Assembly (NCBI GenBank): GCA_021199255.1
Contig: JAJQIK010000072.1
Location: 1-64,000, forward strand
DNA: 64,000 nt
Reading direction: 5' to 3'
From: Clostridiales bacterium
GTDB lineage: Bacteria; Bacillota; Clostridia; Lachnospirales; Lachnospiraceae
How positions within the stretch are numbered: position 1 is the first letter of the stretch; each line of letters begins with the position of its first letter. The position numbers were made by a program, and so were the translations under genes. The notes beneath the pieces were generated by a model that made no database searches, was not told the origin of the DNA, and was given only the letters and a program-made list of their open reading frames with translations. Of this stretch, positions 20,746-37,810 are shown in pieces.

Positions 20746-20801
20746 TGAATAGGGATGTATAAAACCCGCATTAGCGGCGCGGGATTAGAAGCAAATGAAG
20801 G

Positions 20802-20838: not shown

Positions 20839-20843
20839 TGTTT

Positions 20844-20859
20844 TATGCGACGTCGCATA
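20844..20859. repeat. 16-bp perfect palindrome, copy 4 (upstream of topB)
   Basis: TATGCGACGTCGCATA, here extended by three further matching bases on each side (20841-20862). It lies 17 bp before the topB start codon, between the terminator and the ribosome site. Confidence 0.9.
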
Positions 20860-20876
20860 AAAAGGAGAAAAATACC

Positions 20877-23012: not shown

Positions 23013-23035
23013 AATAGATTTTATCACAGAAAGGA

Positions 23036-23060
23036 ACTTCTGGACATGATGTCCAAAAGT
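23036..23060. promoter_or_regulatory. 25-bp imperfect dyad between topB and the zeta locus
   Basis: ACTTCTGGACAT g ATGTCCAAAAGT: 11 of 12 pairs match around a single central base. No T-run follows, so it looks more like a protein-binding site than a terminator. Confidence 0.4.
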
Positions 23061-23074
23061 CGGAAAGAGGAACA

Positions 23075-23233
23075 ATGGAAACAGAAAAAGAGCAGCCGCA
23101 GGAAGAAAGGTTCGTGAAGCTCACAGGGCTTCCGATAAGCGACAGGATGAAAGAAATCCTCGCAAGGCTGGAGCAAGGAGATGTTGCCCTTGATGAGATC
23201 AAGGACACGCCCGAGATGAACATAGCAGGATAA
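23075..23233 (+). CDS. 52-aa protein, N-terminal remnant or antitoxin partner of a zeta-type toxin
   Basis: ATG 23075 follows AAAGAGG (23063-23069). The product (METEKEQPQEERFVKLTGLP, then ILARLEQGDVALDEIKDTPE) matches, from memory, the beginning of zeta-toxin genes of Tn1549-like ICEs. It ends at TAA 23231 and the zeta sequence resumes in another frame 2 bp later. It could be a true small protein, but the junction with the zeta remainder suggests the remains of one longer gene. Confidence 0.5.
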   Translation: METEKEQPQEERFVKLTGLPISDRMKEILARLEQGDVALDEIKDTPEMNIAG

Positions 23234-24219: not shown

Positions 24220-24237
24220 AAAGAAAGAGCTTGTCCA

Positions 24238-24405
24238 TTGAATCCAGAAGTCGAGCGTTTTTTGAAAGAGCAGGAAATTGATTTTTTGAAGAAACAGCAA
24301 ATAGCAGTAAGGTGTATGGAAAAAAACCATGCACCTTTTTTATTTATGACAATAGGTTTGCTGGCGAAGCCGGCAATCTATTGTATGGCTGATACCGTTT
24401 TGTAG
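24238..24405 (+). CDS. Possible small protein (55 aa), start uncertain
   Basis: A frame open after the TAA at 24217 runs from TTG 24238 (LNPEVERFLKEQEIDFLKKQ) to TAG 24403, including a hydrophobic part (APFLFMTIGLLAKPAIYCMA). The preceding AAGAAAGAG is a weak ribosome site. No family recognised. It ends inside the terminator stem, which argues either for a compact gene end or for chance. Confidence 0.3.
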   Translation: MNPEVERFLKEQEIDFLKKQQIAVRCMEKNHAPFLFMTIGLLAKPAIYCMADTVL

Positions 24406-24425
24406 AGATACAAGGCGGTATTTTT
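24393..24425 (+). terminator. Rho-independent terminator, zeta locus end
   Basis: A 12-bp stem TACCGTTTTGTA / TACAAGGCGGTA (two G.U pairs), tetraloop GAGA, then five T. A weaker dyad, roughly CAATAG..GCTGGC / GCCGGC..CTATTG, lies just before it. Confidence 0.8.
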
Positions 24426-24471
24426 GCTTGAAGGAAGATTATTTTATGGCAGACGAAAGGAGAATTGATAG

Positions 24472-26028: not shown

Positions 26029-26052
26029 CCGGAATCCATGGAAAATAACAGC

Positions 26053-26079
26053 AGGGGAACGTGAATCCTTTGTTCCCCT
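26053..26079. other. Intergenic hairpin without T-run
   Basis: AGGGGAAC / GTTCCCCT stem with an 11-base loop, 18 bp before the next start codon. Without a T-run it may be an mRNA-processing or protein-binding element. Confidence 0.5.
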
Positions 26080-26096
26080 CATATTAGGAGCAGGAT

Positions 26097-26825
26097 ATGA
26101 AAGATAAATATATAGTATCAATTTATGTAGCAGAATGTAATGAATTCAGAAATGAGGGCGAATGTTACGAAGGTATATATGATATGCCAGAGGCTATAGA
26201 AGCCCGAAACAGCCTGCCAACTGCCAGAGTGCCTGTAATTGGTTTAAGAATTCATAAAAAGGGGCAGAAAGAGCTTACAGACGTTTTGACAGATATCCTT
26301 ATCGGGGAGGAAATACATTTGGAGGCATTGGAATATATACCAAGAATTTTAGAAAGTGAGGCGGCTGTGAATTATATTGCGGAATTGATTGTCCTGTGTC
26401 CCGATAATCGGATTCAGGGCATGGTTCCGGAATGCCTTGATGCCAGAATTAAAGAATATGAAAAAAACTATCAGGATAAAGAAAATATTTTTAGAATACA
26501 GCTATATAAGAAGTTATCCCAGTTAACGGCAGAAGCCATGAAATATTCTAAATCAACCAATCAATCGGAACGCCAGTATGCAGCGGAATTATTAAAGTAT
26601 GCAGTATCGCAGAAGGAGGCGATCCTTCATGGCCAAAAAGAGATTGATCTGAATAGCCTTCCGTTAAAAGAAAACTATTTTACTGAAGAAATACCCAGGC
26701 AAAACATTGAAAAAACTGACAATGTTAAGACAACGGAGCAGAGTGGCGCCAATTTGCCACGGGTCAATTCCCTGTTGGCAAAGTTATATGAGTACCAGAA
26801 GCTGCTTAAGGAGAAAAGCATATAA
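26097..26825 (+). CDS. Hypothetical ICE protein, 242 aa
   Basis: ATG 26097 follows TTAGGAGCAGG. The first 55 residues (YIVSIYVAECNEFRNEGECY, then IEARNSLPTARVPVIGLRIH) look like a small domain attached to polyvalent mobile-element proteins; the rest is alpha-helical. No catalytic motif seen. It is immediately upstream of mobC and probably belongs to the mobilisation operon. Confidence 0.55.
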   Translation: MKDKYIVSIYVAECNEFRNEGECYEGIYDMPEAIEARNSLPTARVPVIGLRIHKKGQKELTDVLTDILIGEEIHLEALEYIPRILESEAAVNYIAELIVLCPDNRIQGMVPECLDARIKEYEKNYQDKENIFRIQLYKKLSQLTAEAMKYSKSTNQSERQYAAELLKYAVSQKEAILHGQKEIDLNSLPLKENYFTEEIPRQNIEKTDNVKTTEQSGANLPRVNSLLAKLYEYQKLLKEKSI

Positions 26826-26858
26826 ATAAAAACAGTGTTAAGAAGGAGCATTAAGCGC

Positions 26859-27191
26859 ATGAATGTAAACAGGAGACGTGAGCTACAGATTAATTTTAGG
26901 GTTACTCCGGCTGAAAGACAGATGATAAAAGACCGAATTATGAAAAGCGGCTATAGGGAAGAAGGAGAATATCTTAGGAGAATGGCAATTGATGGATATA
27001 TTTTTCATCTGGATAATTCGGATTTGAAACAATTGATTTATGAAATCAATAAAATAGGAACCAATATTAACCAGATAGCACACAAGATTAATAAAGACAA
27101 TGAAATATATCAGACAGATATGGATGAACTTAAGGAGAAGATGGATCGGGTATGGCGGTTACTAAGACAAAGCATATTACAACAACCTTAA
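26859..27191 (+). CDS. mobC: MobC-family relaxosome accessory protein
   Basis: 110 residues. ATG 26859 is used because AAGGAGC lies at 26842-26848. A ribbon-helix-helix-like N-terminus (ELQINFRVTPAERQMIKDRI) is followed by YLRRMAIDGY and the MobC signature LKQLIYEINKIGTNINQIAH. MobC binds oriT with the relaxase and helps nicking. The last 40 bp overlap the relaxase gene. An oriT is expected nearby upstream, but I could not pick it out. Confidence 0.9.
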   Translation: MNVNRRRELQINFRVTPAERQMIKDRIMKSGYREEGEYLRRMAIDGYIFHLDNSDLKQLIYEINKIGTNINQIAHKINKDNEIYQTDMDELKEKMDRVWRLLRQSILQQP

Positions 27192-28540
27192 ATAAAGCAA
27201 TAGACTATATATGCAATGAAAAAAAGACGGATGAAGGAATATTAATTTCTTCTTTTGCCTGTGCACCTGAAACTGCAGATTTGGAATTTTCCTTGACTAA
27301 CCAGAAATATAACCGGAGTGGGAAATGCCTGGCGCATCATTTGATACAATCTTTTAAGCCTGGGGAAGTGACACCGGAGGATGCACACCATATTGGTGAA
27401 GAATGGGCGCAGTCGATATTGGGAGGAAAATATGAGTTTGTTCTTTCCACCCATATTGACAGAGGACATATCCACAATCATTTGATTTTTAACGCGACTT
27501 CTTTTACAGAGGGAAGAAAATATAACGATTGTAAGAGAACGTTGAGATTTCGGATGAAAGAGTCAGACCGTATCTGTAGAGAGCACGGCTTATCTGTTAT
27601 TGAAGAAAAGAGCGGTAGACGTGGGGTTGGAAAATATGAATATGAGCATATAAAACGTGGTACATCTTGGAAAGAAAAAATCAGGATTGCCATTGACGAT
27701 GCCGTAAATAAAGCATCAGACTGGGACGAATTTGTTACTATTATGGAACTGAAAGGATGCGATTGCGAAAGAAATTCTTATGGCATCATGAAGCTTCGGT
27801 TACTGGGGCAAGAACGTTTTGTGTGTATTAATAGCCTTGGTGAAAAATATTCAGAAGATATCATCCGTGACCGTATTGAGAGAAAAGATTATTACAAAAA
27901 TTTGAACCAGCAAGAACAATCAAATGAACGGTATGATAAGAAAAGGGCGCGCCAATATCATAAGAAAAATGTCTCATTAATTGTTGACCTACAGAACAAT
28001 TTACAGGCACAGCAGTCAAGAGGATACAGGCAGGCACTTGAGATAAATAATGTAAACCAGTTATTTAAAACCATTGCATTTCTTGAACAAAACGACTTAG
28101 CGTCATATACTGATTTTTTACAAAAATACAATTCTGTGAAAGAGCAATATGATATGATTCGCAATAAGCTTGCCCCGTTAGAACAACAGTCACTTGCTGT
28201 TTCCGAAAAAATACAATATTGCCAAAATTTCTTTAAAGTGGCCAAGAATGCAAGGATGGCAATTCGTAATCCAGCAATGATGGGAAAATATAAAAATGAG
28301 GTTGCTGTTTATAATTCATGCTTAAGGTATTTTAAAGAAAATAATATTTCCATTAAGGGAATAAATTTGAAGGAATTACTTAATGAACAAAAGCAAATAA
28401 ACGCAACTAGAAGGGAAGTGGCAAACCAGCTTCGTGCATTACGTACAGAAATGAAAAATTGGAATGTAATCAAAGCAAATATTGATACAACTTTAGGATA
28501 CGCTGATGGCCAGGAAAAGCAAAATGATCCGAGAAGTTAA
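27152..28540 (+). CDS. MOBP-type relaxase (MobA/VirD2 family)
   Basis: 462 residues. The relaxase domain is in the first 200 residues, with KCLAHHLIQSFKPGEVTPED and the three-histidine metal motif THIDRGHIHNH at about residues 100-111; the nucleophilic tyrosine is probably Y18 in AIDYICNEKKT. The relaxase cuts oriT and pilots the DNA strand. The C-terminal half is a long coiled coil (EKIQYCQNFFKVAKNARMAI, then LKELLNEQKQINATRREVAN), as in other ICE relaxases. Start ATG 27152 lies in the mobC 3' end. Confidence 0.92.
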   Translation: MAVTKTKHITTTLNKAIDYICNEKKTDEGILISSFACAPETADLEFSLTNQKYNRSGKCLAHHLIQSFKPGEVTPEDAHHIGEEWAQSILGGKYEFVLSTHIDRGHIHNHLIFNATSFTEGRKYNDCKRTLRFRMKESDRICREHGLSVIEEKSGRRGVGKYEYEHIKRGTSWKEKIRIAIDDAVNKASDWDEFVTIMELKGCDCERNSYGIMKLRLLGQERFVCINSLGEKYSEDIIRDRIERKDYYKNLNQQEQSNERYDKKRARQYHKKNVSLIVDLQNNLQAQQSRGYRQALEINNVNQLFKTIAFLEQNDLASYTDFLQKYNSVKEQYDMIRNKLAPLEQQSLAVSEKIQYCQNFFKVAKNARMAIRNPAMMGKYKNEVAVYNSCLRYFKENNISIKGINLKELLNEQKQINATRREVANQLRALRTEMKNWNVIKANIDTTLGYADGQEKQNDPRS

Positions 28541-28551
28541 AAAGATTATAG

Positions 28552-28594
28552 AATGTCTCATCTGTTGGCAGACAGATGAGACATTATTTTTTTT
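28552..28594 (+). terminator. Strong terminator after the relaxase operon
   Basis: 14-bp perfect stem AATGTCTCATCTGT / ACAGATGAGACATT, 6-base loop, then T-rich sequence including eight consecutive T. Confidence 0.92.
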
Positions 28595-28627
28595 GCTCTT
28601 TGAACATATTCTTTAAAATATGTGAAT

Positions 28628-28828
28628 GCCAAAATTTATTTTGGCGGCTGGAATTTATTCCAGCCTATAAGGGGATTGGGGAATTTTCCCCAACAAGCGA
28701 GGTTTGAAAAACCGGCGGAAGTGGCTAGCCACTTCCAGCGCTTGCTATTCCATGAAAACGCCGTTTTCATGGCGTGTTTTAGCCCGCATCGGCGGGCTGT
28801 ATAAAACACATAACGCCGTTACCGGCGT
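28628..28828. other. Array of eight short inverted repeats (hairpins) in 201 bp
   Basis: Hairpins: 28628-28645 (GCCAAAAT/ATTTTGGC, loop TT); 28646-28665 (GGCTGGAAT/ATTCCAGCC, loop TT), abutting the first; 28676-28693 (TTGGGGAA/TTCCCCAA, loop TT); 28701-28713 (GGTTT/AAACC); 28717-28736 (a 20-bp palindrome, GGAAGTGGCT/AGCCACTTCC); 28750-28772 (CCATGAAAAC/GTTTTCATGG); 28774-28809 (GTGTTTTAGCCCGC/GCGGGCT..AAAACAC); 28813-28828 (ACGCCG/CGGCGT). An outer pair CAAGCG (28694-28699) / CGCTTG (28739-28744) encloses two of them in a branched fold. All but the bulged hairpin 7 are perfect stems. The 28541-28938 interval has no credible gene besides this. Function unknown. Confidence 0.85.
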
Positions 28829-28938
28829 AGTTTGCTTTGCATTTTCAATTATAAAGCCTATTAACAAAACTAATTGTCGTAATTTGTAGAATGTGGTAAA
28901 ATAATTAAAAATCTAGGTTATGGGAGGAGATAAGACTT

Positions 28939-29304
28939 ATGAGGGTGGATGAGATATACACAGAAAGGAATTATTATAAAGAATTTTTGTGGTTGTGGAT
29001 TAAAGCAGCATTTATTTATTTTATTGGTGGATATGTATGTTACCTGTTTCAAGGGACTTTTGCCAAAGATATGGCATTTGCAGTGTCAGCTACAGTATTT
29101 GGCTTTACTTTTTTTGAAAAAATTGTACGTTTCAATTTGTTTGGCAATCACGATGCGGTTATATTGTTTTGGGCATTTAAAATTATTTGTTCTTTTATAA
29201 TTGGGATTCTTGTATTCCCGATCGTAAATATTTATTATATTATTATGATAATCCGTTCTATCATGAAAAAAAATTCTGAAGGCGAAGAACTAAAAGAGGA
29301 ATAA
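28939..29304 (+). CDS. Small membrane protein, 121 aa
   Basis: ATG 28939 follows GGGAGGAGATAAG. Three hydrophobic segments (LWIKAAFIYFIGGYVCYLFQ, MAFAVSATVFGFTFFEKIV, IICSFIIGILVFPIVNIYYI) and a charged tail. No family recognised. First gene after the hairpin array and part of the variable cargo. Confidence 0.6.
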   Translation: MRVDEIYTERNYYKEFLWLWIKAAFIYFIGGYVCYLFQGTFAKDMAFAVSATVFGFTFFEKIVRFNLFGNHDAVILFWAFKIICSFIIGILVFPIVNIYYIIMIIRSIMKKNSEGEELKEE

Positions 29305-29338
29305 TCCATAATATTTTTGAATGGAGAGCTAGATAAAT

Positions 29339-29992
29339 ATGGAATTACTTTTGTTAGGATTTATTCTCATAGGTATAGCAGGCGTTATAATATATTATGG
29401 TGGATATGTAATATTGTGGTTTTTGATAAAATCAAGATTGGCATATCCTGTAGCATGGTTTGTTTTTTCTCTTGTTGTAGTTTCTCATAAAGAATGGATC
29501 CTATATACAATTTTAATAAATTCATGGTCGGCAGTATTATGGCTTATAGTTGGTGTCATTTCAGGACTTATGGTAATCGTACTTGGCATCAGGGATGTTA
29601 TTAGATTTTTTATTCCTACATTCAGATGGCGCGATATCCCGAATTATTTTTTTCAAAAAAAATCAGATAAAAAATATGAGAAAGAATTTATTCAATATTG
29701 TGATTTGAAAAACAAACTCTATCATTTATATGAGGGCTTAGAGCAGGAAGAATATTATTTTTATAATGATATATGCAGAAACGCACGTGAGAGAGCAGAA
29801 TTTGATTTAGATTGGAAGTCTTATATAATAGAATTGGAACAATCCGATTCCTTTATTCCGTTTGCAGAATGGTTTTCAAAAAAACAACGATGGAAATGGA
29901 CAAGCTATAACCATGAGTATTCTGAACAATACAAGGCTCTTCGCAGGGAAAATATAAAATATTCTGCGGGAGATGGTTCTGAAAATTCATAA
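29339..29992 (+). CDS. Membrane protein with cytoplasmic C-terminal domain, 217 aa
   Basis: Residues 1-85 contain three membrane spans (LLLLGFILIGIAGVIIYYGG, YPVAWFVFSLVVVSH, SAVLWLIVGVISGLMVIVLG). The remainder is charged, helical and aromatic-rich (EEYYFYNDICRNARERAEFD, SFIPFAEWFSKKQRWKWTS). Start ATG 29339 has GGAGAG upstream. Unrecognised; the membrane-plus-effector layout and position next to a nuclease gene recall defence cargo, which is only a suggestion. Confidence 0.6.
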   Translation: MELLLLGFILIGIAGVIIYYGGYVILWFLIKSRLAYPVAWFVFSLVVVSHKEWILYTILINSWSAVLWLIVGVISGLMVIVLGIRDVIRFFIPTFRWRDIPNYFFQKKSDKKYEKEFIQYCDLKNKLYHLYEGLEQEEYYFYNDICRNARERAEFDLDWKSYIIELEQSDSFIPFAEWFSKKQRWKWTSYNHEYSEQYKALRRENIKYSAGDGSENS

Positions 29993-30077
29993 TTGTGGGT
30001 ATATTGTACCCCTGAACAATAAACATAAAAAGCGGGTTTCTCTTGAACCGTACGCATGAAAAATACGAAATAGATAA

Positions 30078-30119
30078 TATGTGACAGAGGGAGGAACTGC
30101 ACAATGTCTGAAATCAGCA
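30078..30119. repeat. 42-bp inverted copy, arm 1 (5' end of the DUF2726-like gene)
   Basis: The sequence covering the ribosome site and first five codons of the nuclease gene recurs exactly in reverse complement at 32692-32733. Confidence 0.9.
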
Positions 30120-30721
30120 TAAAACCCAAAAGATTATATGACAGCGATGTTGAAAACTTAAGTTATGATATATTAAAAGAACTGATAAATCTGGAACACT
30201 ACGAGATTGTTCCTCATGTTATTTTGAGGGATATTCTTCCTCCCCAGCAAGATTCTACATGGGGAAATTTTCATATTGACTTTGTTATCTGCGATAAGCG
30301 CGGATATCCGGTTATGGGAATGGAAATTAACGGTCCTAAGCATTGGAATGATTCTTGCAGAAAAGAGCATGATCAAATCAAAAAACAAATATTTACAAAA
30401 GCTCAAATTCCATTAATCTTTATTCCAATTGTGGAATTACCTCAGTACAACCATTTAGATATTGGCAAGCAATACCGGCTAGCGCTTCAATCCCTTTTGA
30501 TAAACTGCTTATCTCCCTACATATACGCTACTGCATTCCCTGCATACTGCTGGAAATGCGGCGGGATTCTAGATATAAAATTTAACAATGATAATTTTGC
30601 TCCGTTTTACATATGTTCAAATAAGGATTGTGAATGTTATAAAAACAATAAAACATTCCCAGCAGAAATATCCCATCCAATATTAAGTGAAGCCGCTTTG
30701 AAATTTTTCAAGAAAACTTGA
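30104..30721 (+). CDS. DUF2726-like PD-(D/E)XK nuclease-fold protein with zinc-binding tail
   Basis: 205 residues. ATG 30104 follows GAGGGAGGAAC. Residues about 47-85 contain the restriction-fold core: FHIDFVICDKRGYPVMGMEI followed by NGPKHW, giving the acidic D-(x)n-E pair of PD-(D/E)XK enzymes with N replacing the usual K after E. FTKAQIPLIFIPIVELPQY continues the fold. C-terminal CWKCGG...ICSNKDC (about 150-175) should bind zinc. DUF2726 domains occur in helicases and stand-alone putative nucleases of mobile elements. It may act on foreign DNA; activity unproven. Confidence 0.7.
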   Translation: MSEISIKPKRLYDSDVENLSYDILKELINLEHYEIVPHVILRDILPPQQDSTWGNFHIDFVICDKRGYPVMGMEINGPKHWNDSCRKEHDQIKKQIFTKAQIPLIFIPIVELPQYNHLDIGKQYRLALQSLLINCLSPYIYATAFPAYCWKCGGILDIKFNNDNFAPFYICSNKDCECYKNNKTFPAEISHPILSEAALKFFKKT

Positions 30722-30789
30722 TTTTTCTCAGCATTTTACATATACGGATAGTTTTTGCAAAATGGAGAAAGTGCTATGAAACTCGTCGC

Positions 30790-31039
30790 ATGAGCGAATT
30801 AGCACCTAGAATACACGATGACAGTAACGGATTTGATTATATTCTTGTGGGAGATTATTACATTCCTGCACTTGTCGGGGATATGCCGGATATTTCGACA
30901 ATCGGCAGATGGGGTAGAATGAGGTTAGAGTTTATCAAGAAGAATTGTCCGACACTTTATCATGAGCTGAAATGTAGTGGAATCTATCCGTTCCAGAGCT
31001 GAAGAAATCGTTATAAACGAGCTGATTTATGAAAGATAA
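30790..31039 (+). pseudogene. Decayed TnpV-family gene
   Basis: ATG 30790 begins MSELAPRIHDDSNGFDYILV, then DYYIPALV, GRWGRMRLEFIKKNCPTLYH and ELKCSG, which is TnpV. Instead of continuing, the frame stops at 31000-31002. In the next frame the typical TnpV ending R-A-E-E-I-V-I-N-E-L-I-Y-E-R appears immediately (30995-31039). About 40-50 codons are missing from the middle, and the frame is shifted. Confidence 0.7.
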
Positions 31040-31111
31040 TGGAAATTTAATTTGTGAAAAGCATGGATACAGAGTATAATAAAATCAGACAAAGGAAAGT
31101 AGGTACAACAA

Positions 31112-31930
31112 GTGGCAGAAGATATGATTTTAGATCAGGAAATGCAGAGTGTTGACCAAATCATAGATAATATGTCCCTCATGGACGATGATTTGTTTGG
31201 ACTGGTATTTAACAATAATATTCCGGCGGCAGAAGTGCTGCTAAAAACAATCCTAAAACGTGACGATATAGAGATTATAAGCGTAGAGGGCCAGAAAGAA
31301 CTTAGAAATCCCGAAGTCGGCGGTCGTATGATAAGACTTGATGTTCTGGTGAAAGATGGAACAGGACGCTTTTACAATGTGGAGGTTCAGCGTACTAACA
31401 GCGGAGCACACCCAAAGCGAGCAAGATTTCATAGCAGTATGGTGGATGCAAGAATGCTGAAAGAAGGACAGAAATTCAAGGAATTGAAAGAGTCCTATGT
31501 CATTTTTATTACAGAAAATGACTATTGGGGAGAGGAACTTCCAATCTACACCATCAATCGGCACTTTGAAGAAGTTGATAGAGTATTTGAGGACGAATCG
31601 CATATTATATATGTGAATGGAAGTTACAAAGGCAATGATGCAATAGGACATCTCATGCAGGACTTTCGATGTAAGAAAGCCGATGACATTCAAAATGCAG
31701 AATTGGCAAAAGGCGTGAGATATTTCAAAGAAAATGAAGGAGGTCGACAGGAAATGTGTGAAAGTGTTGAACGATATGGAGATCAAAGAGCAATTAAAGC
31801 AACAATAGAAACAAGCATTGAACTTGGTGCAAATAAGGAAAAAGTAGTGGATATTTTGAGAAAGAGATTTGCACTATCAGAGGAACAGGCAGAGCGTGTA
31901 TATGAACGTTACGCTCCGGCAGTTGTATAA
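31112..31930 (+). CDS. PD-(D/E)XK nuclease family transposase-like (Rpn/PF12784) protein
   Basis: 272 residues from GTG 31112 (AAAGGAAAG upstream; ATG 31124 is an alternative). The nuclease core is at about residues 75-100: RMIRLDVLVKDGTGRFYNVE with D and E-V-Q-R in PD-(D/E)XK spacing, followed by PKRARFHSSMVDARML typical of this family. The tail EQAERVYERYAPA is the short C-terminal signature. Members are RecA-independent recombination nucleases, often multicopy in Lachnospiraceae. Length is normal for the short subfamily. Confidence 0.85.
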   Translation: MAEDMILDQEMQSVDQIIDNMSLMDDDLFGLVFNNNIPAAEVLLKTILKRDDIEIISVEGQKELRNPEVGGRMIRLDVLVKDGTGRFYNVEVQRTNSGAHPKRARFHSSMVDARMLKEGQKFKELKESYVIFITENDYWGEELPIYTINRHFEEVDRVFEDESHIIYVNGSYKGNDAIGHLMQDFRCKKADDIQNAELAKGVRYFKENEGGRQEMCESVERYGDQRAIKATIETSIELGANKEKVVDILRKRFALSEEQAERVYERYAPAVV

Positions 31931-32045
31931 CAAAATATCAGACATCAAAAATATGTGCGGTGATCCTACCGCCCCAAATTTAAGCGCTTACCATTGATCC
32001 TCCGGGAGATGCCCGGCCGTGCTTGAGAATGTAGCATAAATTTTC

Positions 32046-32074
32046 TTGAACTGGCCTAGAATTTATGGTATAGT
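32046..32074 (+). promoter_or_regulatory. Sigma-A promoter of antitoxin RNA copy 1
   Basis: TTGAAC (32046-32051), 17-bp spacer, TATAGT (32069-32074). The same boxes and spacing recur at 32288-32316. Confidence 0.75.
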
Positions 32075-32080
32075 ATAGTA

Positions 32081-32212
32081 AGGTTAAAGAAAGACACCTG
32101 CACTAACAGGCGCCTTCCGGGAGCACCGATAGACGGTTAGCCACAAATCAATAACAATATTAGAAATGATCGCTTAGTTTGCAGACTCGGGCGGTCATTT
32201 CTGTGTCTTGTT
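32081..32212 (+). ncRNA. Orphan type I antitoxin-like RNA, copy 1
   Basis: Downstream of a perfect-spacing promoter, this copy shares with copy 2 the blocks GACACCTGC, ACAGG, CCGGGAGC and CGATAGACGGTTAGCCACAAA. It ends in the stem GAAATGATCGC / GCGGTCATTTC. It lies opposite the 3' end of a toxin gene that has lost its start, so it has no intact partner here. Ends are estimated from the promoter and the hairpin. Confidence 0.65.
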
Positions 32213-32280
32213 TCTATCTTTGCCTAAGGCGTATCCCATTCCGGAGCAGGTCAAGCCGAAGCTCAACACGTAGCCAGCAA
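32195..32280 (-). pseudogene. 5'-truncated type I toxin gene remnant
   Basis: On the minus strand the codons read V-L-S-F-G-L-T-C-S-G-M-G-Y-A-L-G-K-D-R-N-K-T-Q-K-stop, matching the C-terminal 24 residues of the intact toxin downstream. Upstream of this the Met-Ser-Ile-Ala start, ribosome site and leader are replaced by sequence joining the second antitoxin promoter. Confidence 0.7.
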
Positions 32281-32287
32281 ATTTTCC

Positions 32288-32316
32288 TTGAACTGATTTG
32301 GAAACCATGCTATAGT
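32288..32316 (+). promoter_or_regulatory. Sigma-A promoter of antitoxin RNA copy 2
   Basis: TTGAAC (32288-32293), 17-bp spacer, TATAGT (32311-32316). Confidence 0.78.
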
Positions 32317-32322
32317 AAGCAT

Positions 32323-32447
32323 AAGGAAAGACACCTGCGTCAACAGGTGTCCCTCCGGGAGCGCCGATAGACGGTTAGCCACAAAATTGATTAGGTTAAA
32401 AGAAATAACCGCTTCACATGCGACTGGGGCGGTTATTTCTGTGTTTT
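32323..32447 (+). ncRNA. Type I antitoxin RNA, copy 2 (paired with intact toxin)
   Basis: RNA of about 125 nt from the promoter above to the hairpin GAAATAACCGC (32402-32412) / GCGGTTATTTC (32429-32439) and a T-rich end. Its 3' part is antisense to the last codons and 3' end of the toxin mRNA, as in txpA/RatA-type modules where toxin and antitoxin RNAs converge. The hairpin is followed by T-rich sequence on both strands, so it can terminate both transcripts. Confidence 0.72.
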
Positions 32448-32531
32448 ATGATTATCCTTGCCGAACGTATACCCGGCACAAAAGCAGCCGACGCCGAAGC
32501 TCAGCACTGCAATTAAGTCTGCGATACTCAT
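32433..32531 (-). CDS. Holin-like type I toxin peptide, 32 aa
   Basis: Minus-strand ATG at 32531 with ribosome site AAAGGAGGG eight bases upstream. Product begins MSIADLIAVLSFGVGCFCAG, a short hydrophobic helix, and ends KDNHKTQK, a basic tail. This is the pattern of 30-35-residue membrane toxins (putative holin-like toxin family) from Firmicutes. It would insert in the membrane and depolarise the cell if translated. Antisense RNA and an occluded ribosome site keep it silent (see the following entries). Likely function: maintenance of the ICE. Too short for usual gene finders. Confidence 0.75.
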   Translation of the reverse strand: MSIADLIAVLSFGVGCFCAGYTFGKDNHKTQK

Positions 32532-32537
32532 TGGCTC

Positions 32538-32609
32538 AGCCCTCCTTTCTTCAGATTCCCTTGCGGGTTTCTATGTAATCGGAGGGTCACAGTCCCTCCG
32601 GAGAGGGCT
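32538..32609 (-). promoter_or_regulatory. Toxin mRNA leader with self-occluded ribosome site
   Basis: The toxin ribosome-site region (plus-strand AGCCCTC at 32538-32544) is exactly complementary to a leader segment (plus-strand GAGGGCT at 32603-32609). A further hairpin CGGAGGG / CCCTCCG (32580-32600) lies between them. Full-length mRNA would therefore hide the start site, as is known for type I toxins. Confidence 0.6.
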
Positions 32610-32647
32610 AACCGCCTACCATCCTAGTAGCTCTTGCCCATTATCCT

Positions 32648-32653
32648 ACTATA
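32648..32653 (-). promoter_or_regulatory. Probable -10 box of the toxin promoter
   Basis: Minus-strand TATAGT about 115 bp upstream of the toxin start; the -35 region is poor (TTGTGG at 15 bp spacing). Confidence 0.45.
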
Positions 32654-32691
32654 GTTCGACAGAAATTTCCACAATTAGATATATTTTTTAT

Positions 32692-32733
32692 TGCTGATTT
32701 CAGACATTGTGCAGTTCCTCCCTCTGTCACATA
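32692..32733. repeat. 42-bp inverted copy, arm 2 (stub of a second DUF2726-like gene start)
   Basis: Exact reverse complement of 30078-30119. Read on the minus strand, it places a ribosome site and the codons ATG TCT GAA ATC AGC directly downstream of the XRE gene at 32737, after which homology stops. So a nuclease gene once followed this regulator. Confidence 0.88.
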
Positions 32734-32858
32734 TATCTATTTTTTATTTCCGGCGATATATCCTTTTACAAAACCAATACATTCATTTTTGGTATCAGGA
32801 TCGGATAAGGATAATTGCCTGTATAAATTTAACCAGTCGTTTTCTTCTTGTGACAAAT
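32734..32858. repeat. Direct repeat A, copy 1 (3' part of XRE gene)
   Basis: 125 bp almost identical to 33363-33487 (two differences seen), covering the last 40 codons of both XRE regulators plus the stop codon. Confidence 0.9.
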
Positions 32859-33060
32859 CATCATTTCTATGTTTACCAGTCAGGAGATAATCTGTACTCA
32901 CATTAAAATAGTTGGCAAATTTTAATATGGTTTCTCCATTTGGAATAACGCCTTTTTTCCAGTTAGTTATAGTTCCTTTACTCATTCCTAGTTGTTGTAT
33001 AAGAGACGTTACTGAAATGTTATTTTCTTTACATAAAATTTTTAATTGATCAAAAAACAT
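32737..33060 (-). CDS. XRE-family transcriptional repressor 1
   Basis: 107 residues. N-terminal HTH_3 domain (LKILCKENNISVTSLIQQLG, then MSKGTITNWKKGVIPNGETI, LKFANYFNVSTDYLLTGKH). The C-terminal 40 residues (LSQEENDWLNLYRQLSLSDP...) are identical to those of the second regulator at 33366, while the HTH halves share only family-level similarity. Probably a phage-type repressor acting on the 33.1 or 33.75 kb promoter region. In the minus direction it is followed by a stub of a nuclease gene start. Confidence 0.85.
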   Translation of the reverse strand: MFFDQLKILCKENNISVTSLIQQLGMSKGTITNWKKGVIPNGETILKFANYFNVSTDYLLTGKHRNDDLSQEENDWLNLYRQLSLSDPDTKNECIGFVKGYIAGNKK

Positions 33061-33116
33061 ACGCCCACCAGTCTATTAAAATGAACTATATTGTTGATAA
33101 GTTCATTTTAATGCGC

Positions 33117-33283
33117 TATACTTTAAAATGTAATCACTAAGGTAATAGTATATTTTAAGGTTATAATGGTACAAAAATAACGGATAACATACGTAAATGG
33201 TATCTTTATCATTTTGATAATACGCCTAAATATACTATTCTATTTTATCTGAACAAGTTTACAAAGTAAAGCATAAACAAAAA
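33117..33283. repeat. Direct repeat B, copy 1 (operator/promoter region)
   Basis: 167 bp nearly identical to 33743-33909 (three or four differences seen). It contains the inverted pair AATAGTATATTT / AAATATACTATT at 33144-33155 and 33228-33239. Confidence 0.9.
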
Positions 33284-33296
33284 TAGGAAGGACAAG

Positions 33297-33443
33297 ATGT
33301 ATCTGTTTGAAGCGGTTTATGAAAATGTTTATACAGGCGAGAAGATTACAAGTGTCACATATTATCTATTTTTTATTTCCGGCGATATATCCTTTTACAA
33401 AACCAATACATTCATTTTTGGTATCAGGATCGGACAAGGATAA
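33297..33443 (+). pseudogene. Truncated small gene fused to antisense of the XRE repeat
   Basis: GGAAGGACAAG precedes ATG 33297 and 18 codons (MYLFEAVYENVYTGEKIT) that look like the start of a small ICE protein. At about 33,353 the sequence becomes repeat A read from the wrong strand, giving 30 meaningless codons before TAA 33441. The original gene was cut by the duplication. Confidence 0.55.
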
Positions 33444-33487
33444 TTGCCTGTATAAATTTAACCAGTCGTTTTCTTCCTGTGACAAAT
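33363..33487. repeat. Direct repeat A, copy 2
   Basis: See 32734-32858; offset 629 bp. Confidence 0.9.
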
Positions 33488-33689
33488 TTGTGGTTTCATT
33501 GTTTCCAGTATACAGATAATCTATAGAAACATGGAGTAAAGAAGCAACTTTGTAAAGCTTTTCTACGGAAGGTTTTACTTTTCCCCATTTTGCAATAGAA
33601 CCATTTGCCAAATGAGTTTTTCTTTCTATGGATGCGAGGGATAGTCCTTGCTTAAGTCCTTCTTCTTTTATTCGTTCTGCAATAGTCAT
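33366..33689 (-). CDS. XRE-family transcriptional repressor 2
   Basis: 107 residues, same length as repressor 1. HTH part differs (ERIKEEGLKQGLSLASIERK, then THLANGSIAKWGKVKPSVEK, YKVASLLHVSIDYLYTGN), but the last 40 residues are identical. It is divergent from the HTH gene at 33925 and shares a 235-bp control region with it that includes an inverted repeat (33770-33865). Probably the working immunity repressor of the present element. Confidence 0.85.
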   Translation of the reverse strand: MTIAERIKEEGLKQGLSLASIERKTHLANGSIAKWGKVKPSVEKLYKVASLLHVSIDYLYTGNNETTNLSQEENDWLNLYRQLSLSDPDTKNECIGFVKGYIAGNKK

Positions 33690-33742
33690 GGCAACGCTCC
33701 CAAAATAGAATATTATCTATTGACAACTAGAAAATATTCTAA

Positions 33743-33909
33743 TATACTTTAAAATGTAATCAGTAAGGTAATAGTATATTTTAGGGTTATAATGGTACAA
33801 AAATAACGGATAACATACGTAAATGGTATCCTTATCATTTTGATAATACGCCTAAATATACTATTCTATTTTATCTGAACAAGTTTACAAAGTAAAGCAT
33901 AAACAAAAA
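33743..33909. repeat. Direct repeat B, copy 2
   Basis: See 33117-33283; offset 626 bp. Ends just before the ribosome site of the 33925 gene. Confidence 0.9.
33770..33865. promoter_or_regulatory. Paired operator-like inverted repeats in the divergent control region
   Basis: AATAGTATATTT (33770-33781) and its complement AAATATACTATT (33854-33865), 72 bp apart. Their preservation in both repeat copies, in a region between a repressor and its divergent gene, suggests repressor-binding sites that may loop. Confidence 0.5.
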
Positions 33910-33924
33910 AGGAGTACAACAGAT

Positions 33925-34206
33925 ATGGACAAGAAACTTTCGCCGTGGAGCAAGGAGGTCAAAAAAGCGATGCTGGACAGGGATATGGATACAAATGATG
34001 TGGCAGCGGCGCTTCACTATACCAGGCAGTATGTTTCGACTGTGATAAACGGCGGCCGCTATTACCGGGATGCTGTTGTCCGGATTAGCCAAATGTTTGA
34101 TATAGAGGTCCCAGAAGAGGGAACAACCCTGGCGAAGACAAAGCAGAGTTGCCGTAGCCATAATGATGGCAGCAAAACGAAGAATCGAGGATGTCTTTAT
34201 GGATGA
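33925..34206 (+). CDS. Helix-turn-helix regulator, 93 aa
   Basis: ATG 33925 after AAAGGAG (33909-33915). Residues 8-60 form a Cro/XRE-like HTH (VKKAMLDRDMDTNDVAAALH, then YTRQYVSTVINGGRYYRDAV, RISQMFDIE). The last 20 residues are basic and overlap the next gene. Divergent arrangement with repressor 2 is the CI/Cro layout of phages and ICEs; this would be the Cro-like partner or an activator of the following genes. Confidence 0.75.
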   Translation: MDKKLSPWSKEVKKAMLDRDMDTNDVAAALHYTRQYVSTVINGGRYYRDAVVRISQMFDIEVPEEGTTLAKTKQSCRSHNDGSKTKNRGCLYG

Positions 34207-34450
34207 ATTGGTGAAAGAGGCACTTGAAGAATATAAAAGGGAATATGAAGAGTATCTTGATTTTATGCTTGCCGAATATGATGTGCCTAAAAATGTAAAA
34301 CTCCTTCAAGACAATATGCTCCTGCATTTGGCATTAAAAGAGGCCACAGAAACAATAAAAGACCTGAACATGAAAAACCGCAGCGGATGGTATCGGAACA
34401 ATGACGGACAGTCTGACCATAATAAAAGGAAAAACGAAGCAGAAAAATGA
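34163..34450 (+). CDS. Hypothetical protein in the regulatory operon, 95 aa
   Basis: Starts ATG 34163 inside the HTH gene; ATG 34199 (after GAGGATG) is a good alternative and gives 83 residues. The product is helical and charged (VKEALEEYKREYEEYLDFML, then VKLLQDNMLLHLALKEATET). No domain recognised. Confidence 0.5.
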   Translation: MMAAKRRIEDVFMDELVKEALEEYKREYEEYLDFMLAEYDVPKNVKLLQDNMLLHLALKEATETIKDLNMKNRSGWYRNNDGQSDHNKRKNEAEK

Positions 34451-34767
34451 ATAGAGCCAAAGAATGGAATATAATCGATATCTTCATTATGAAAGCGGAA
34501 GATTTTATACATAATTTCAGGCTGGAAGATTTATCCGACCAGGTGGATACAGAGACAATTATTGCAGCCCAGACAGAGTATCTCCGAGAGGAAAATGAGC
34601 ATTTAAAAGCAAGGGAAACTCCCATATATATGATTGAAAAAGATGAAAAATATTTCTGCCCCAAGTGCCATACTTTCTTACAGGAAAATGCGAAATATTG
34701 TAGTAATTGTGGGCATAGGGTCATAAAGCATATTTCTGTAGATGGATATATATGCAAAGTGAAATGA
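34447..34767 (+). CDS. Zinc-ribbon protein, 106 aa
   Basis: ATG 34447 overlaps the previous stop (ATGA). N-terminal helices (IIDIFIMKAEDFIHNFRLED) are followed by a zinc ribbon CPKCHTFLQENAKYCSNCGH (residues about 72-91) with CxxC pairs. Position at the end of the regulator operon suggests a DNA- or RNA-associated role; unrecognised beyond the ribbon. Confidence 0.6.
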   Translation: MNRAKEWNIIDIFIMKAEDFIHNFRLEDLSDQVDTETIIAAQTEYLREENEHLKARETPIYMIEKDEKYFCPKCHTFLQENAKYCSNCGHRVIKHISVDGYICKVK

Positions 34768-34833
34768 CCAGCCTTTTGATTTGGGTTAGAAGCAGCTTGT
34801 AAAAAGCTTTTCTATAGATAGCACTTTGACAAA

Positions 34834-35160
34834 TGCGCCGCAGGGGAAACCTTGTGTAAGAACATAGCACTTGCGTTATAAAGTCCGGTAACGTCTGGCA
34901 GATGGAGAGCTGCACAGTGGGAACGCGAGGATCTTATTCTCTTTTGAAACGTCTAAGCAGAAGATTATTAGAGGGAGCGGGTACTGTTCTGTGTTAAGTT
35001 CCGTGGTAAGGAATGGAGCGAGGACACTTCTGCCGGTGATAATGATACACACCAATCTAGGAGTCTGCCCATAGAAATGGGAGAGGTAGAGTAGTATGCG
35101 TCGAAATGCGTATATAAGGGTAACCTGTGGAGCTGACCAACAGCCGCCGGCATTTATTTA
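34834..35160 (+). ncRNA. Structured non-coding stretch, possibly the 5' part of a group II intron
   Basis: There is no credible gene between 34,768 and 35,331. The stretch beginning TGCGCCGCAGGGGAAACC has many short stems: GCAG/CTGC around 34,899-34,914; TTCC/GGAA around 35,000-35,015; CCCAT-AGAA-ATGGG at 35,069-35,082; TATGCG/CGTATA at 35,095-35,114. The opening and the spacing of motifs remind me of domain I of bacterial group II introns, but the first base of the expected GTGYG is not G, and I find no reverse transcriptase and no domain V. Treat as a structured RNA of unknown type. Confidence 0.35.
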
Positions 35161-35180
35161 ATGAACAAGATTAATCATTT

Positions 35181-35262
35181 GGGAGTGGTGGATGTTCCAT
35201 TCACCAAGCACATATTCATTCCCCATTTATGGATGGACATTCTGTGAATGTCCATCACTCCC
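35181..35262 (+). promoter_or_regulatory. Mutually exclusive hairpins upstream of the recombinase operon
   Basis: Three pairings compete: 35187-35205 (GGTGGATG/CATTCACC); 35232-35256 (11-bp perfect GATGGACATTC/GAATGTCCATC, loop TGT); and a long 17-bp pairing of 35181-35197 with 35246-35262, with only three G.U pairs. No T-run follows. It resembles a switching leader or a cluster of protein sites. Confidence 0.5.
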
Positions 35263-35331
35263 AGAAGATTAAATATAGTGATACGGACAAAACAAACCGT
35301 CATATGATATAGCAGGAAGGAGGAAGCGCTT

Positions 35332-35481
35332 ATGGAGGCTGTGATGAAAAATTGTAAAAGTATTTTTATTTCGGATCAATCAAAAATCCGGGATACCTTT
35401 ACTAAATTATGGGTCCAGGTTATTGACCAGGAAGAAAACAGTATAAAGACAGACAAAAATATACAGGCTAATATTATATAA
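35332..35481 (+). CDS. Small protein preceding the recombinase, 49 aa
   Basis: ATG 35332 follows GGAAGGAGGAAG, an excellent ribosome site. Product MEAVMKNCKSIFISDQSKIR... has no recognised domain. Location 44 bp upstream of the recombinase start suggests a role in recombination control or excision. Confidence 0.55.
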   Translation: MEAVMKNCKSIFISDQSKIRDTFTKLWVQVIDQEENSIKTDKNIQANII

Positions 35482-35525
35482 TTAGCATCTGCTGGTACAG
35501 GTTTGTTTTATTAAGGGATGATATA

Positions 35526-37097
35526 ATGAACAATAACATTGTTGCTATTTATAGCCGGTTATCTGAAGAAGACAGGAATAAACTCAATGAATCTGACGAC
35601 AGCCAGAGCATCCAAAACCAAAAAAGTATGCTGATCACTTATGCCATGAGCCAGGGCTGGGAAATCTATAACATATATTCAGATGACGACTATAAAGGTT
35701 CAGACAGAAACAGGCCGGCTTTTAAACAGTTGATGCAGGATGCCGAAAACAGGAAATTTAATATTGTGCTATGTAAGTCACAGGCGAGGTTTACCAGGGA
35801 ACTGGAACTGGTGGAAAAAATCATACATGGCCAGTTTGTTGAGTGGGGGATCCGTTTTGTGGGGTATGCCGATAATGCGGATACTTCTGTTGCAGGGAAT
35901 AAGAAAGCAAGGCAAATTAACGGACTGGTCAATGAATGGTATCTGGAGGATTTGTCTGATAATATTAAGACTGTTTTGACGGATCACCGCAAGAAAGGGA
36001 TGCATATTGGTTCTTTTGCACTGTATGGGTATCAGAAAGATCCTGAAAGGAAAGGGCATCTGATTATTGATGAAGAAGCTGCGGAGACGGTCAAACTTGT
36101 TTTTGAACTATATGCCTCCGGTATGGGTCGGACGGCCATTGCCAGATATTTAAATGAACAGGGTATTCCTAATCCGACCGAGTATAAGCGCCAGCAGGGA
36201 CTCCGTTATCATGGTACATCTGCCCAATATGGAACCTTGTGGAAATATTATTCGGTCAGTAATATGTTGCATAATGAAATGTATATTGGCAATATGGTAC
36301 AGGGAAAGTATAAGAATCCCACCTATAAATCTAAAAGCAGCAAGCCGGTTCCGAAGGAACAGTGGATCAGGGTGGAGGGTACCCATGAGGCTATTATTGA
36401 AAGAGACCTATGGAATAAGGTACAGGATATGCTGGCAGCCAGGACTAAGCCGATGTGTACAGGTGAGATAGGCATTTTTGCAGGTAAAACAAGATGTATG
36501 TATTGTGGTTATGCGCTCAGGTCGTGCAAAAACAGAGAATACAGGTATTTACGCTGCACTTCCAGATTTTTTGATAAAGAATCCTGTAAGGGAGCCTTTA
36601 TTGCGCAGCGCTTCCTGGAGCAGGCGGTGTTGGACGAGTTAAATAATATCATCAGCCAGTATTTTGACGAGGAAGCTGCCCGGGAGAAATTGTCTGTTGA
36701 ACGGGAACATGAATTACACAAGACAAAGCTGCAGAAAGAGGCTGCGGGATGCAGGAAAAGAATAAGCGAATTGGAACATGCCCTGAAAAGCCTGTATTTA
36801 GATAAAACGAAAGGAATTATTACAGAACAGGAGTTCCTGGATTTTAAGACAGCCTTTGTGGAAGATATGGAAGGATACAAAAAGAAGCTGGCTGAGTTAG
36901 AGCAGCAAATAGATTTATGGAGGAAGGAGACAGATGAGGCACATTCTATTAAAAATATCCTGCAAAAATACCGAAATATTAAAAAATTGAACCGCACTAT
37001 TGTTGATGCGTTGATTGATTATATTGAAATAGGACGCAGTGAAAGCAAAGCCCATAAAGCTGATCTCCCACCGATGATTATTCATTGGAAGTTTTAA
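35526..37097 (+). CDS. Large serine recombinase (site-specific integrase of the ICE)
   Basis: 523 residues. Resolvase catalytic domain at residues 1-145 with the nucleophile Ser10 in AIYSRLSEEDR, plus QNQKSMLITYA and the DRNRPAF segment. Recombinase domain about 155-270 (LYGYQKDPERKGHLIIDEEA, YLNEQGIPNP). Zinc ribbon about 325-370 (CMYCGYALRSC...CTSRFFDKESC), then a coiled coil (ISELEHALKSLYLDKTKGII). Such enzymes integrate and excise Tn4451/CTn5-type elements with a 2-bp crossover. The gene ends 13 bp from the truncated cotJC, at the element boundary. Confidence 0.95.
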   Translation: MNNNIVAIYSRLSEEDRNKLNESDDSQSIQNQKSMLITYAMSQGWEIYNIYSDDDYKGSDRNRPAFKQLMQDAENRKFNIVLCKSQARFTRELELVEKIIHGQFVEWGIRFVGYADNADTSVAGNKKARQINGLVNEWYLEDLSDNIKTVLTDHRKKGMHIGSFALYGYQKDPERKGHLIIDEEAAETVKLVFELYASGMGRTAIARYLNEQGIPNPTEYKRQQGLRYHGTSAQYGTLWKYYSVSNMLHNEMYIGNMVQGKYKNPTYKSKSSKPVPKEQWIRVEGTHEAIIERDLWNKVQDMLAARTKPMCTGEIGIFAGKTRCMYCGYALRSCKNREYRYLRCTSRFFDKESCKGAFIAQRFLEQAVLDELNNIISQYFDEEAAREKLSVEREHELHKTKLQKEAAGCRKRISELEHALKSLYLDKTKGIITEQEFLDFKTAFVEDMEGYKKKLAELEQQIDLWRKETDEAHSIKNILQKYRNIKKLNRTIVDALIDYIEIGRSESKAHKADLPPMIIHWKF

Positions 37098-37128
37098 AAT
37101 ATGTTGTTCTTATATGCTTGTAGCATCT
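37098..37128. other. Right attachment junction (attR region) inside cotJC
   Basis: CotJC coding homology (minus strand ...E-D-M-A-A-D) ends at about 37,125; the next codons (A-T-S-I-stop) are foreign. The host codons GCA GAT at 37125-37130 contain a GA dinucleotide, the crossover type used by related recombinases. Exact crossover cannot be fixed without the left junction. Confidence 0.65.
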
Positions 37129-37532
37129 GCCGCCATATCCTCCATCAAATCAGTAATGATATCGCCGGTAGACTGGAACTGGGAGGCGCTAAAGGGGAAG
37201 CCGCTTGCTGCCTGCGGCCATACGCCGATAGTATGGTCTACATAGTAATTGGCAAAGCCGGATTCTTCAATCTCTTCCATGGACAAATCCTTGGTTAACT
37301 GATGAACTATGGTGGCAACCATCTCCAGATGAGCCAGTTCTTCAGTACCGATATCCGTCAGAATAGCCGAAACCTCCCGATAGGGGCAAGCGTATCTTTG
37401 CGACAGGTATCTCATGGACGCGCCCATTTCGCCGTCAGGCCCGCCGTACTGGCTGATTACAGCCTGTGCCAGCCTGGCGTTGGGAGTGGTAATATTTACA
37501 GGAAATTCAAGTCTTTTTTCATAATTCCACAT
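37110..37532 (-). pseudogene. cotJC: cotJC, 3'-truncated by ICE insertion
   Basis: 140 codons from ATG 37532 (overlapping the cotJB stop, TAATG). Sequence is CotJC: MWNYEKRLEFPVN, ISQYGGPDGEMGASMRYLSQ, TDIGTEELAHLEMVATIVHQ, GDIITDLMEDMAAD. Full-length CotJC is about 190 residues and continues after this point with an E-E-K-A-R-A-T-Y helix and R-F-L-R-E-R-E-x-x-H, which contribute ligands of its manganese-catalase-like fold. Those residues are absent; four foreign codons and a stop follow. Inactive unless the ICE excises precisely. Confidence 0.85.
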
Positions 37533-37810
37533 TAATTGCAGCCTCCTTCCCATGGCATCGGTCCAAGAGCCCATTTCCAGTCGCCGCATTCCGACGTGTC
37601 TGCGCAGGAAAGTGTCAGCGGGCCGTATTTGGCGCAGTATTCTTTTTTGGCCTGATTGCTCATACGATTATAATGGTTAAAATATTCCATAGCGTTGCGG
37701 TCGTCGGGGTGCGTATCCAGATAGAGGGACATTTCGGTTACTACGAAAGAGAGAACGTTGACGTCATGAAGCATTTTCTCTTTCTCATTGTCAAAATGCG
37801 TATTCATCAT
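37532..37810 (-). CDS. cotJB: Spore coat protein CotJB
   Basis: 92 residues, ATG 37810 (second ATG follows directly), ribosome site AGGAGG within the end of cotJA. Family features: LHDVNVLSFVVTEMSLYLDT, HPDDRNAMEYFNHYN and the ending KWALGPMPWEGGCN. CotJB belongs to the inner spore coat polypeptide set made in the mother cell. The cotJA-cotJB-cotJC order is that of B. subtilis and Clostridia. Confidence 0.92.
   Translation of the reverse strand: MMNTHFDNEKEKMLHDVNVLSFVVTEMSLYLDTHPDDRNAMEYFNHYNRMSNQAKKEYCAKYGPLTLSCADTSECGDWKWALGPMPWEGGCN

What the first reader, a model, noticed from the sequence alone, without database searches (positions are those of the whole stretch)
37110..37532. ICE inserted inside the spore-coat gene cotJC, with the recombinase at the junction
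CotJC homology stops exactly where the ICE begins, after the ...E-D-M-A-A-D segment. The operon is otherwise intact. Large serine recombinases excising elements from sporulation genes are known from skin (sigK) and SP-beta (spsM). If this ICE excises precisely in the mother cell, cotJC would be restored. That would be a conjugative spore-gene intervening element.
Basis: partly seen in the sequence, partly recalled or inferred. Interest (0 to 1): 0.85.

Follow-up and report, generated by a model that had tools for sequence, protein, structure and literature searches.

The report
Conjugative element splits spore catalase gene
A 38-kb DNA element with genes for moving between cells sits inside the spore-coat catalase gene cotJC of a gut bacterium, placed so that clean removal would restore the gene, and related elements hit the same spot in many other spore-formers.

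Summary
CotJC breaks at codon 136; the missing 3' part is at the other ICE end on contig C88, which shares its terminal 55-mer only with the window's contig. The element is 38,071 bp; joining the flanks gives an open 201-aa CotJC with Glu136, a predicted Mn ligand, restored. Its serine recombinase belongs to a clade tied to this codon: 74 of 80 named loci fetched by recombinase similarity (72 of 78 without two query contigs) carry CotJC broken there. At least two ICE types use it; one is 99.6-100% identical in Diplocloster modestus and Clostridium fessum up to the junction, where cotJC drops to 69%. A sigmaK/E-type -10 box is enriched before the recombinase operon (38 of 64; shuffle mean 5.1, maximum 11). 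cotJC is also split at three further sites near predicted ligand codons; 32 of 66 genus genomes with a match are split. Mother-cell excision was not observed; in a relative, contigs break exactly at the core of a cotJC ICE, as if empty and occupied sites coexist.

The parts
1..37133 (.). ICE, right-hand 37.1 kb; the left ~0.95 kb (with most of parA) is on contig C88 (L032:1-1001); 38,071 bp core to core
37113..37532 (-). cotJC 5' part, to codon 136, plus four element-encoded residues
37126..37133 (-). recombination core GCGGCAGA at codons 134-136, shared with the other end (L032:994-1001)
35526..37097 (+). large serine recombinase, 523 aa, site-B clade
   Evidence: PF00239, PF07508, PF13408
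35332..35481 (+). 49-aa ORF of a kind conserved upstream of site-B recombinases; candidate recombination directionality factor
   Evidence: no Pfam match over its cut-off
35283..35309 (+). sigmaK/E-like promoter AC-N16-CATATGATA
37532..37810 (-). cotJB
   Evidence: PF12652
37807..37980 (-). cotJA
   Evidence: PF11007
38030..38038 (-). cotJ operon -10 box CATATGATA, same nonamer as the recombinase operon
1..165 (+). 3' end of parA (rest on C88)
   Evidence: stop read by eye
2428..4182 (+). ArdC-type antirestriction protein with MuF-C domain
6895..8781 (+). T4SS coupling protein (VirD4/TraG)
9203..10120 (+). TrbL/VirB6-like protein
10135..13056 (+). PrgI-VirB4-type ATPase
13072..15054 (+). M23 peptidase, likely part of the transfer apparatus
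15306..16418 (+). CD1107-like mobile element protein
20838..23012 (+). DNA topoisomerase
26835..27191 (+). NikA/MobC relaxosome protein
27152..28540 (+). MobA/VirD2-type relaxase

Best explanation
The element is an integrative conjugative element whose serine recombinase is specialised for the DNA of cotJC codons 134-136. In growing cells it stays integrated and cotJC is split. During sporulation a mother-cell sigma factor transcribes the small ORF and the recombinase at about the time the cotJ operon is transcribed; the recombinase, helped by a small directionality factor, excises the ICE at the GA of codon 136 and restores full-length CotJC in the mother cell. The mother cell dies, so the forespore keeps the ICE and the host pays little. 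The same recombinase integrates the ICE into the conserved codons of new hosts after conjugation. Shown from sequence: both ends, core, in-frame join, site specificity of the clade, ICE gene set, recent inter-genus transfer of a relative, promoter enrichment, purifying selection on cut-off gene parts. Inferred: timing, mother-cell restriction, the role of the small ORF, and excision of this ICE itself.
For: 3' part in frame at the far end, 201-aa join. 74 of 80 loci fetched by recombinase similarity have CotJC broken at this codon, 72 of 78 without two query contigs; 15 of 15 loci with both parts have them in one orientation. At codon 136 the 5' parts read Asp in 32 of 38 (5 Glu, 1 other), the 3' parts Glu in 51 of 51. 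ICE end 99.6-100% identical between two genera up to the junction, cotJC 69%. CATANNNTA upstream of the operon in 38 of 64 loci, 37 of 63 without the window (reverse complement 5 of 64; Markov shuffles mean 5.1, max 11 of 300); GC<0.42 subset 30 of 37 against 21 of 290 other ORFs. Same nonamer CATATGATA after AC-N16 before the recombinase operon and the cotJ operon of the window. Cut-off 3' parts: median pairwise dN/dS 0.067 at site A and 0.12 at site B against 0.06-0.07 for intact genes. Relative G013: contigs end exactly at the two edges of the 9-bp core of an ICE in cotJC. Host has sigmaE and a SigK-subfamily protein.
Against: No excision or expression data. The window's own assembly shows no fork at its att sites. 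The fuller pattern AC-N15-17-CATANNNTA is in only 9 of 64 (shuffle mean 0.75, max 6). The -10 box was noticed in the window before it was tested. It is absent upstream of most recombinases examined at sites A (1 of 11) and C (0 of 12). The attP dyad of the window is not significant (83 of 500 shuffles reach it). A first dN/dS pass on site-B 3' parts, with an indel loop left in, gave 0.224 (61 pairs, max 1.57); without the loop 0.12. Absence of stops in cut-off parts is biased, since parts were found as open stretches. The contig join rests on a 55-bp assembly overlap, not on reads. In Clostridioides difficile cotCB and cotD mutants are reported to lose catalase activity without significant coat defect (passage of PMC11222575), so the gene may be dispensable.
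Confidence: 0.78

Rival explanations
1. Dead-end disruption: the ICE simply inactivated cotJC, a dispensable coat gene, and no regulated excision restores it.
For: 11 of 77 genus genomes have no cotJC match at all, so the gene may be dispensable, or missed in incomplete genomes; related C. difficile genes are reported as not needed for coat formation (passage of PMC11222575); no excision was observed.
Against: Cut-off 3' parts keep low dN/dS; two site-A genomes at dS 0.53 have dN/dS 0.038 in the cut-off part; mother-cell-type promoter enrichment.
Confidence: 0.1
2. Excision happens only for conjugative transfer in growing cells, under stress or density control; cotJC returns only in cells that lost the ICE.
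For: The element has an ICE gene set; the forks at att cores in relatives need not come from sporulating cells; recombinases at sites A and C mostly lack the -10 box.
Against: Site-B operon promoter signature shared with the cotJ operon; conservation of cut-off parts.
Confidence: 0.1
3. The 140-aa truncated CotJC is the functional product and the 3' part is a relic.
For: The truncated frame is open.
Against: It lacks two predicted Mn ligands (E136 reads Asp, H170 is lost), and the 3' parts remain under purifying selection.
Confidence: 0.02

Closest known systems
skin (sigK), SP-beta (spsM), vfbin (spoVFB), gin (gerE), yin (yabG) gene-intervening elements
   Same: Serine recombinase element inside a sporulation gene, short shared core, halves that join in frame; small directionality factors shown or proposed: GirX 42 aa, CD1234 53 aa, yin candidate 72 aa (passages of PMC5595907, PMC10747680, PMC5025042).
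   Different: Those are prophages or prophage-like, or the non-phage island gin, whose authors suggest it may move with a plasmid conjugation system and which has ImmR/ImmA homologues. Here an element with its own conjugation genes sits in another gene, and one codon is used by different ICE types and by small elements across many genera.
ICEBs1-SPbeta chimera made in the laboratory (PMC6957869, passages)
   Same: An ICE with a sporulation-gene recombination unit that transfers and integrates into spsM.
   Different: That one was engineered; these are natural.
CTn/Tn1549-type and Tn916-type ICEs (type names recalled)
   Same: Relaxase or Rep_trans protein, coupling protein, VirB4-type ATPase, CD1107-like or TcpC proteins.
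   Different: Integration into one codon of a spore-coat gene by a recombinase clade tied to it, with a sporulation-type promoter.
Prophage phi027 next to a CotJC-related catalase gene in C. difficile R20291 (PMC11222575, abstract and passages)
   Same: A mobile element beside a CotJC-related manganese catalase gene.
   Different: The passages seen call the gene adjacent, not interrupted; I did not examine that junction.

Membership tests
Sporulation gene-intervening element | Inserted in a sporulation gene with the two halves at its two ends | tested here: met
Sporulation gene-intervening element | Removal at a short shared core restores the frame | tested here: met
   201-aa CotJC
Sporulation gene-intervening element | Element-encoded site-specific recombinase tied to that site | tested here: met
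   By association, not by assay: 74 of 80 loci
Sporulation gene-intervening element | Recombination directionality factor | tested here: inconclusive
   Conserved small ORF in 64 of 83 loci by a regular expression written after reading the ORFs; role not shown
Sporulation gene-intervening element | Excision during sporulation, in the mother cell | not testable with these tools
   Promoter signature only
Integrative conjugative element | Relaxase, coupling protein, T4SS ATPase | tested here: met
Integrative conjugative element | Horizontal spread between hosts | tested here: inconclusive
   Met for a Tn916-type relative at the same codon; not shown for the window's own ICE
Integrative conjugative element | Circular form and conjugative transfer | not testable with these tools
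   No reads or mating data
Large serine recombinase | Resolvase, Recombinase and zinc ribbon domains | tested here: met

The most novel reading that the evidence does not exclude
cotJC is a gene in pieces across gut and other anaerobic spore-formers. Elements occupy up to four sites, each next to or inside the codons of the predicted Mn ligands; at three of them a separate recombinase lineage was identified. ICEs, found at two of the sites, spread between genera at little cost because the terminal mother cell cuts them out to assemble the catalase, some species needing two, three or more excisions in one gene.
Probability: 0.6. Interest if true: 0.92.

Novelty: new variant of a known kind. Interest (0 to 1): 0.86.

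Why it matters
It joins two life strategies that the papers I saw treat apart in nature: conjugation, and insertion into a sporulation gene with developmental excision. The terminal mother cell would offer a mobile element a host gene it can occupy almost for free, and the most conserved codons of a metal-site gene give a target present in many species. It makes testable whether mother-cell excision is a general route for ICE spread among gut bacteria, and it supplies recombinases with closely related natural sites.

Tried and rejected
Mis-assembly: rejected because the break recurs on 74 of 80 loci and the 55-mer join is unique in the genome. An excised circle: plasmid record OY725852.1 looked like one, but it holds the cotJC 3' part next to the recombinase and, by my reading of unannotated frames, chromosomal genes. 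IMG/VR contigs: 6 of 18 carry CotJC at site B; the one examined (L235) has TcpC and NlpC/P60 proteins like a Tn916-type ICE. attP dyad: not significant in the window. Same -10 box at sites A and C: 1 of 11 and 0 of 12, with 12 of the 13 C-cluster recombinases tested. Phage records: all 601 matches under 60% identity, the 15 listed at most 42.5%; plasmid records: all 334 under 60%. A first regular expression for the small ORF matched 0 of 85 loci; the second was written after reading those frames.

Six of 80 loci have no CotJC part: L141, L147, L158, L200, L212, L214; in L147, L158 and L214 the recombinase ends within 100 bp of a contig end. Dropped before counts: L153 and L052 (same contigs as L051 and L135); 11 of 77 genus genomes without a match. 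The classes of the 66 are my reading's table; only added them up. Ancestral sequences, and so branch-wise dN/dS, could not be had.

Full report
Observation. The frame at 37113-37532(-) is CotJC to codon 136 followed by four element-encoded residues. CotJB and CotJA upstream are intact. Full-length genus relatives run on for about 65 residues. A search of the window's own genome found that missing part once, on contig C88. C88 and the window's contig C4 overlap by exactly 55 bases, that 55-mer occurs only at these two contig ends in this genome, and an open parA frame runs across the join. The element is therefore 38,071 bp from core to core. Joining the flanks gives a 201-aa CotJC without a stop. 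GC is 0.411 in the element against 0.494 and 0.476 in the flanks.

The element. Pfam finds a coupling protein, PrgI-VirB4, a TrbL-like protein, M23 peptidase, a CD1107-like protein, topoisomerase, NikA/MobC, a MobA/VirD2-type relaxase and ArdC. The recombinase has the three domains of a large serine recombinase and ends 28 bp from the core.

The site. Both ends share GCGGCAGA. Among relatives the common part is GA of codon 136: 5' parts read Asp there in 32 of 38 (5 Glu, 1 other), 3' parts Glu in 51 of 51. Profile alignment with manganese catalase 1jku puts CotJC E35, E65, H68, E136 and H170 at the positions of its metal ligands (the ligand list is recalled). So the crossover appears to lie inside a predicted ligand codon.

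Specificity. CotJC parts broken at this codon lie on 74 of the 80 loci, 72 of 78 without the two contigs whose recombinases were in the query. The recombinase is a median of 92.5 bp from the 5' part (38 cases) or 46 bp from the 3' part (51 cases). In an order-level set that partly overlaps, 14 of 22 loci L106-L127 have such a part within about 1.5 kb, and 0 of 7 of the more distant L128-L134. Hosts in the record titles include Diplocloster modestus, Clostridium fessum, Roseburia faecis, Agathobaculum butyriciproducens, Anaerotignum lactatifermentans, Eubacterium plexicaudatum and Sporomusa ovata.

Mobility. Site-B elements measured 2.9 to 11.5 kb on the 15 loci that held both ends, a range limited by the 10-kb flanks, and 23.7 and 20.3 kb in G342 and G282. 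These two carry Tn916-type genes: AAA_10, NlpC/P60, FtsK and Rep_trans in both, and TcpC in G342 (the type name is recalled). The ICE end of Diplocloster modestus and that of Clostridium fessum are 99.6-100% identical over about 9.6 kb up to the junction (95.4% in the outermost 1.8 kb fetched); cotJC beyond is 69.3% identical and the sequence further upstream 60-65%. Two weaker cases: 96.8-97.7% against 78.2%, and 90.3% against 64.9%.

Other sites. In this genus 66 of 77 genomes have a CotJC match. By my reading 32 have an uninterrupted copy; 13 are split only near codon 177 (site C), 14 near codon 62 (site A, 4 of them also at C), 5 at codon 136 (site B, 2 of them also at C), and 2 are undetermined. 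Two of the split ones, G474 and G017, also hold an uninterrupted divergent copy (64-65% identity). Most are draft assemblies. A site-B-class recombinase of about 1000 bits is in 5 of 77; in G479, split at B, none was found. Recombinase frames from the fetched loci fall into one cluster per site, 11 at A, 5 at B, 13 at C; 4 of 33 frames fell in none. The A and C loci had been fetched because cotJC was split, so this is not an independent test there. From the recombinase side CotJC lies next to 5 of 16 A-class loci and, mostly by weak tail matches, 7 of 30 C-class loci, including the four best-scoring loci of each. A fourth site near codon 31 is used in other genera. G013 (site A) carries an ICE with the same kind of transfer genes as the window.

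Regulation. A 41-73-aa ORF (median 48) lies just upstream of the recombinase in 64 of 83 site-B loci, by a regular expression written after reading the frames. In the 160 bp before it CATANNNTA occurs in 38 of 64 loci (37 of 63 without the window, where I first noticed it), against 5 of 64 on the reverse strand and a shuffle mean of 5.1 with a maximum of 11; in the GC<0.42 subset 30 of 37 against 21 of 290 other ORFs. These loci are related, so the counts are not independent. The window has AC-N16-CATATGATA before its recombinase operon and before cotJA; the box is upstream of 20 of 20 cotJ operons checked in the genus, 19 in the same arrangement. In Clostridioides difficile the operons of the catalases CotCB and CotD depend on sigmaK, and a sigmaK promoter is given there with -35 AC and -10 CATATAAT (passages of PMC3789822). 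Against: the fuller spacing pattern is in only 9 of 64, and recombinases at A and C mostly lack the box (1 of 11, 0 of 12). The host has sigmaE over its cut-off and a SigK protein over the cut-off of NF004471 but below that of TIGR02846.

Is the split gene kept? Cut-off 3' parts at site A (11 rows, two from one genome) and site B (52) have no stops in the stretches compared, but they were found as open stretches, so this is biased. Median pairwise dN/dS is 0.06 for intact pairs and 0.067 for site-A pairs; dS is high and only 63 of 561 and 17 of 55 pairs were usable. For site B a first pass with an indel loop left in gave 0.224 (61 pairs, max 1.57); on a 23-codon stretch without the loop it is 0.12 against 0.07 for intact genes.

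Excision trace. In G013 contig C22 ends at the last base of the 9-bp core and C4 begins at its first base, while the ICE contig overlaps each by 55. This is what an assembler does when empty and occupied sites are both present; a strain mixture could also cause it. G481's contig begins at the edge of core C, and G486's, intact across site B, ends 55 bp after the start of GCAGA; the latter is only suggestive, as no site-B recombinase was found in G486. The window's genome shows no such fork.

Literature. Known intervening elements lie in sigK, spsM, spoVFB, gerE and yabG (passages of PMC5595907 and PMC10747680). An ICE carrying SP-beta's recombination unit was made in the laboratory and integrates into spsM (passages of PMC6957869). 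Prophage phi027 lies next to a CotJC-related catalase gene in C. difficile R20291; the passages seen call the gene adjacent, not interrupted (PMC11222575). A large survey of serine recombinases did not mention catalase or spore genes in the words searched in its main text (PMC10083194). Searches for cotJC or spore-coat genes together with intervening elements, interruption, recombinases, integrases or ICEs listed no paper that, by title and abstract, describes an element inside cotJC; the library holds open-licence papers only.

Noticed in passing
L047 (G006) 6206-6823 and 13374-13817; also L041, L048, L055: Some genomes have an intact cotJC plus a second copy of part of its 3' region a few kb away, as if an element had brought a replacement 3' end.
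   Followed up: partly
G533, G695, G743, G052: cotJC appears in several pieces, mostly on different contigs, suggesting several elements in one gene.
   Followed up: partly
L141, Holdemanella biformis: A site-B-class recombinase (55% identity) with no CotJC part within 10 kb: another target, or a host without the gene.
   Followed up: no
L235 (IMG/VR 2846178487): A contig in the viral collection carries Tn916-type transfer genes and sits in cotJC; probably an ICE filed as a virus.
   Followed up: partly
L302, contig C78:51-533 of the window's genome: A second SigK-like frame cut off near a contig start, besides the one on C53.
   Followed up: no
L043, 212 bp upstream of the site-A recombinase: The site-A element of G032 carries the same CATATGATA box as the window's site-B ICE, as if recombinase modules had been exchanged.
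   Followed up: no
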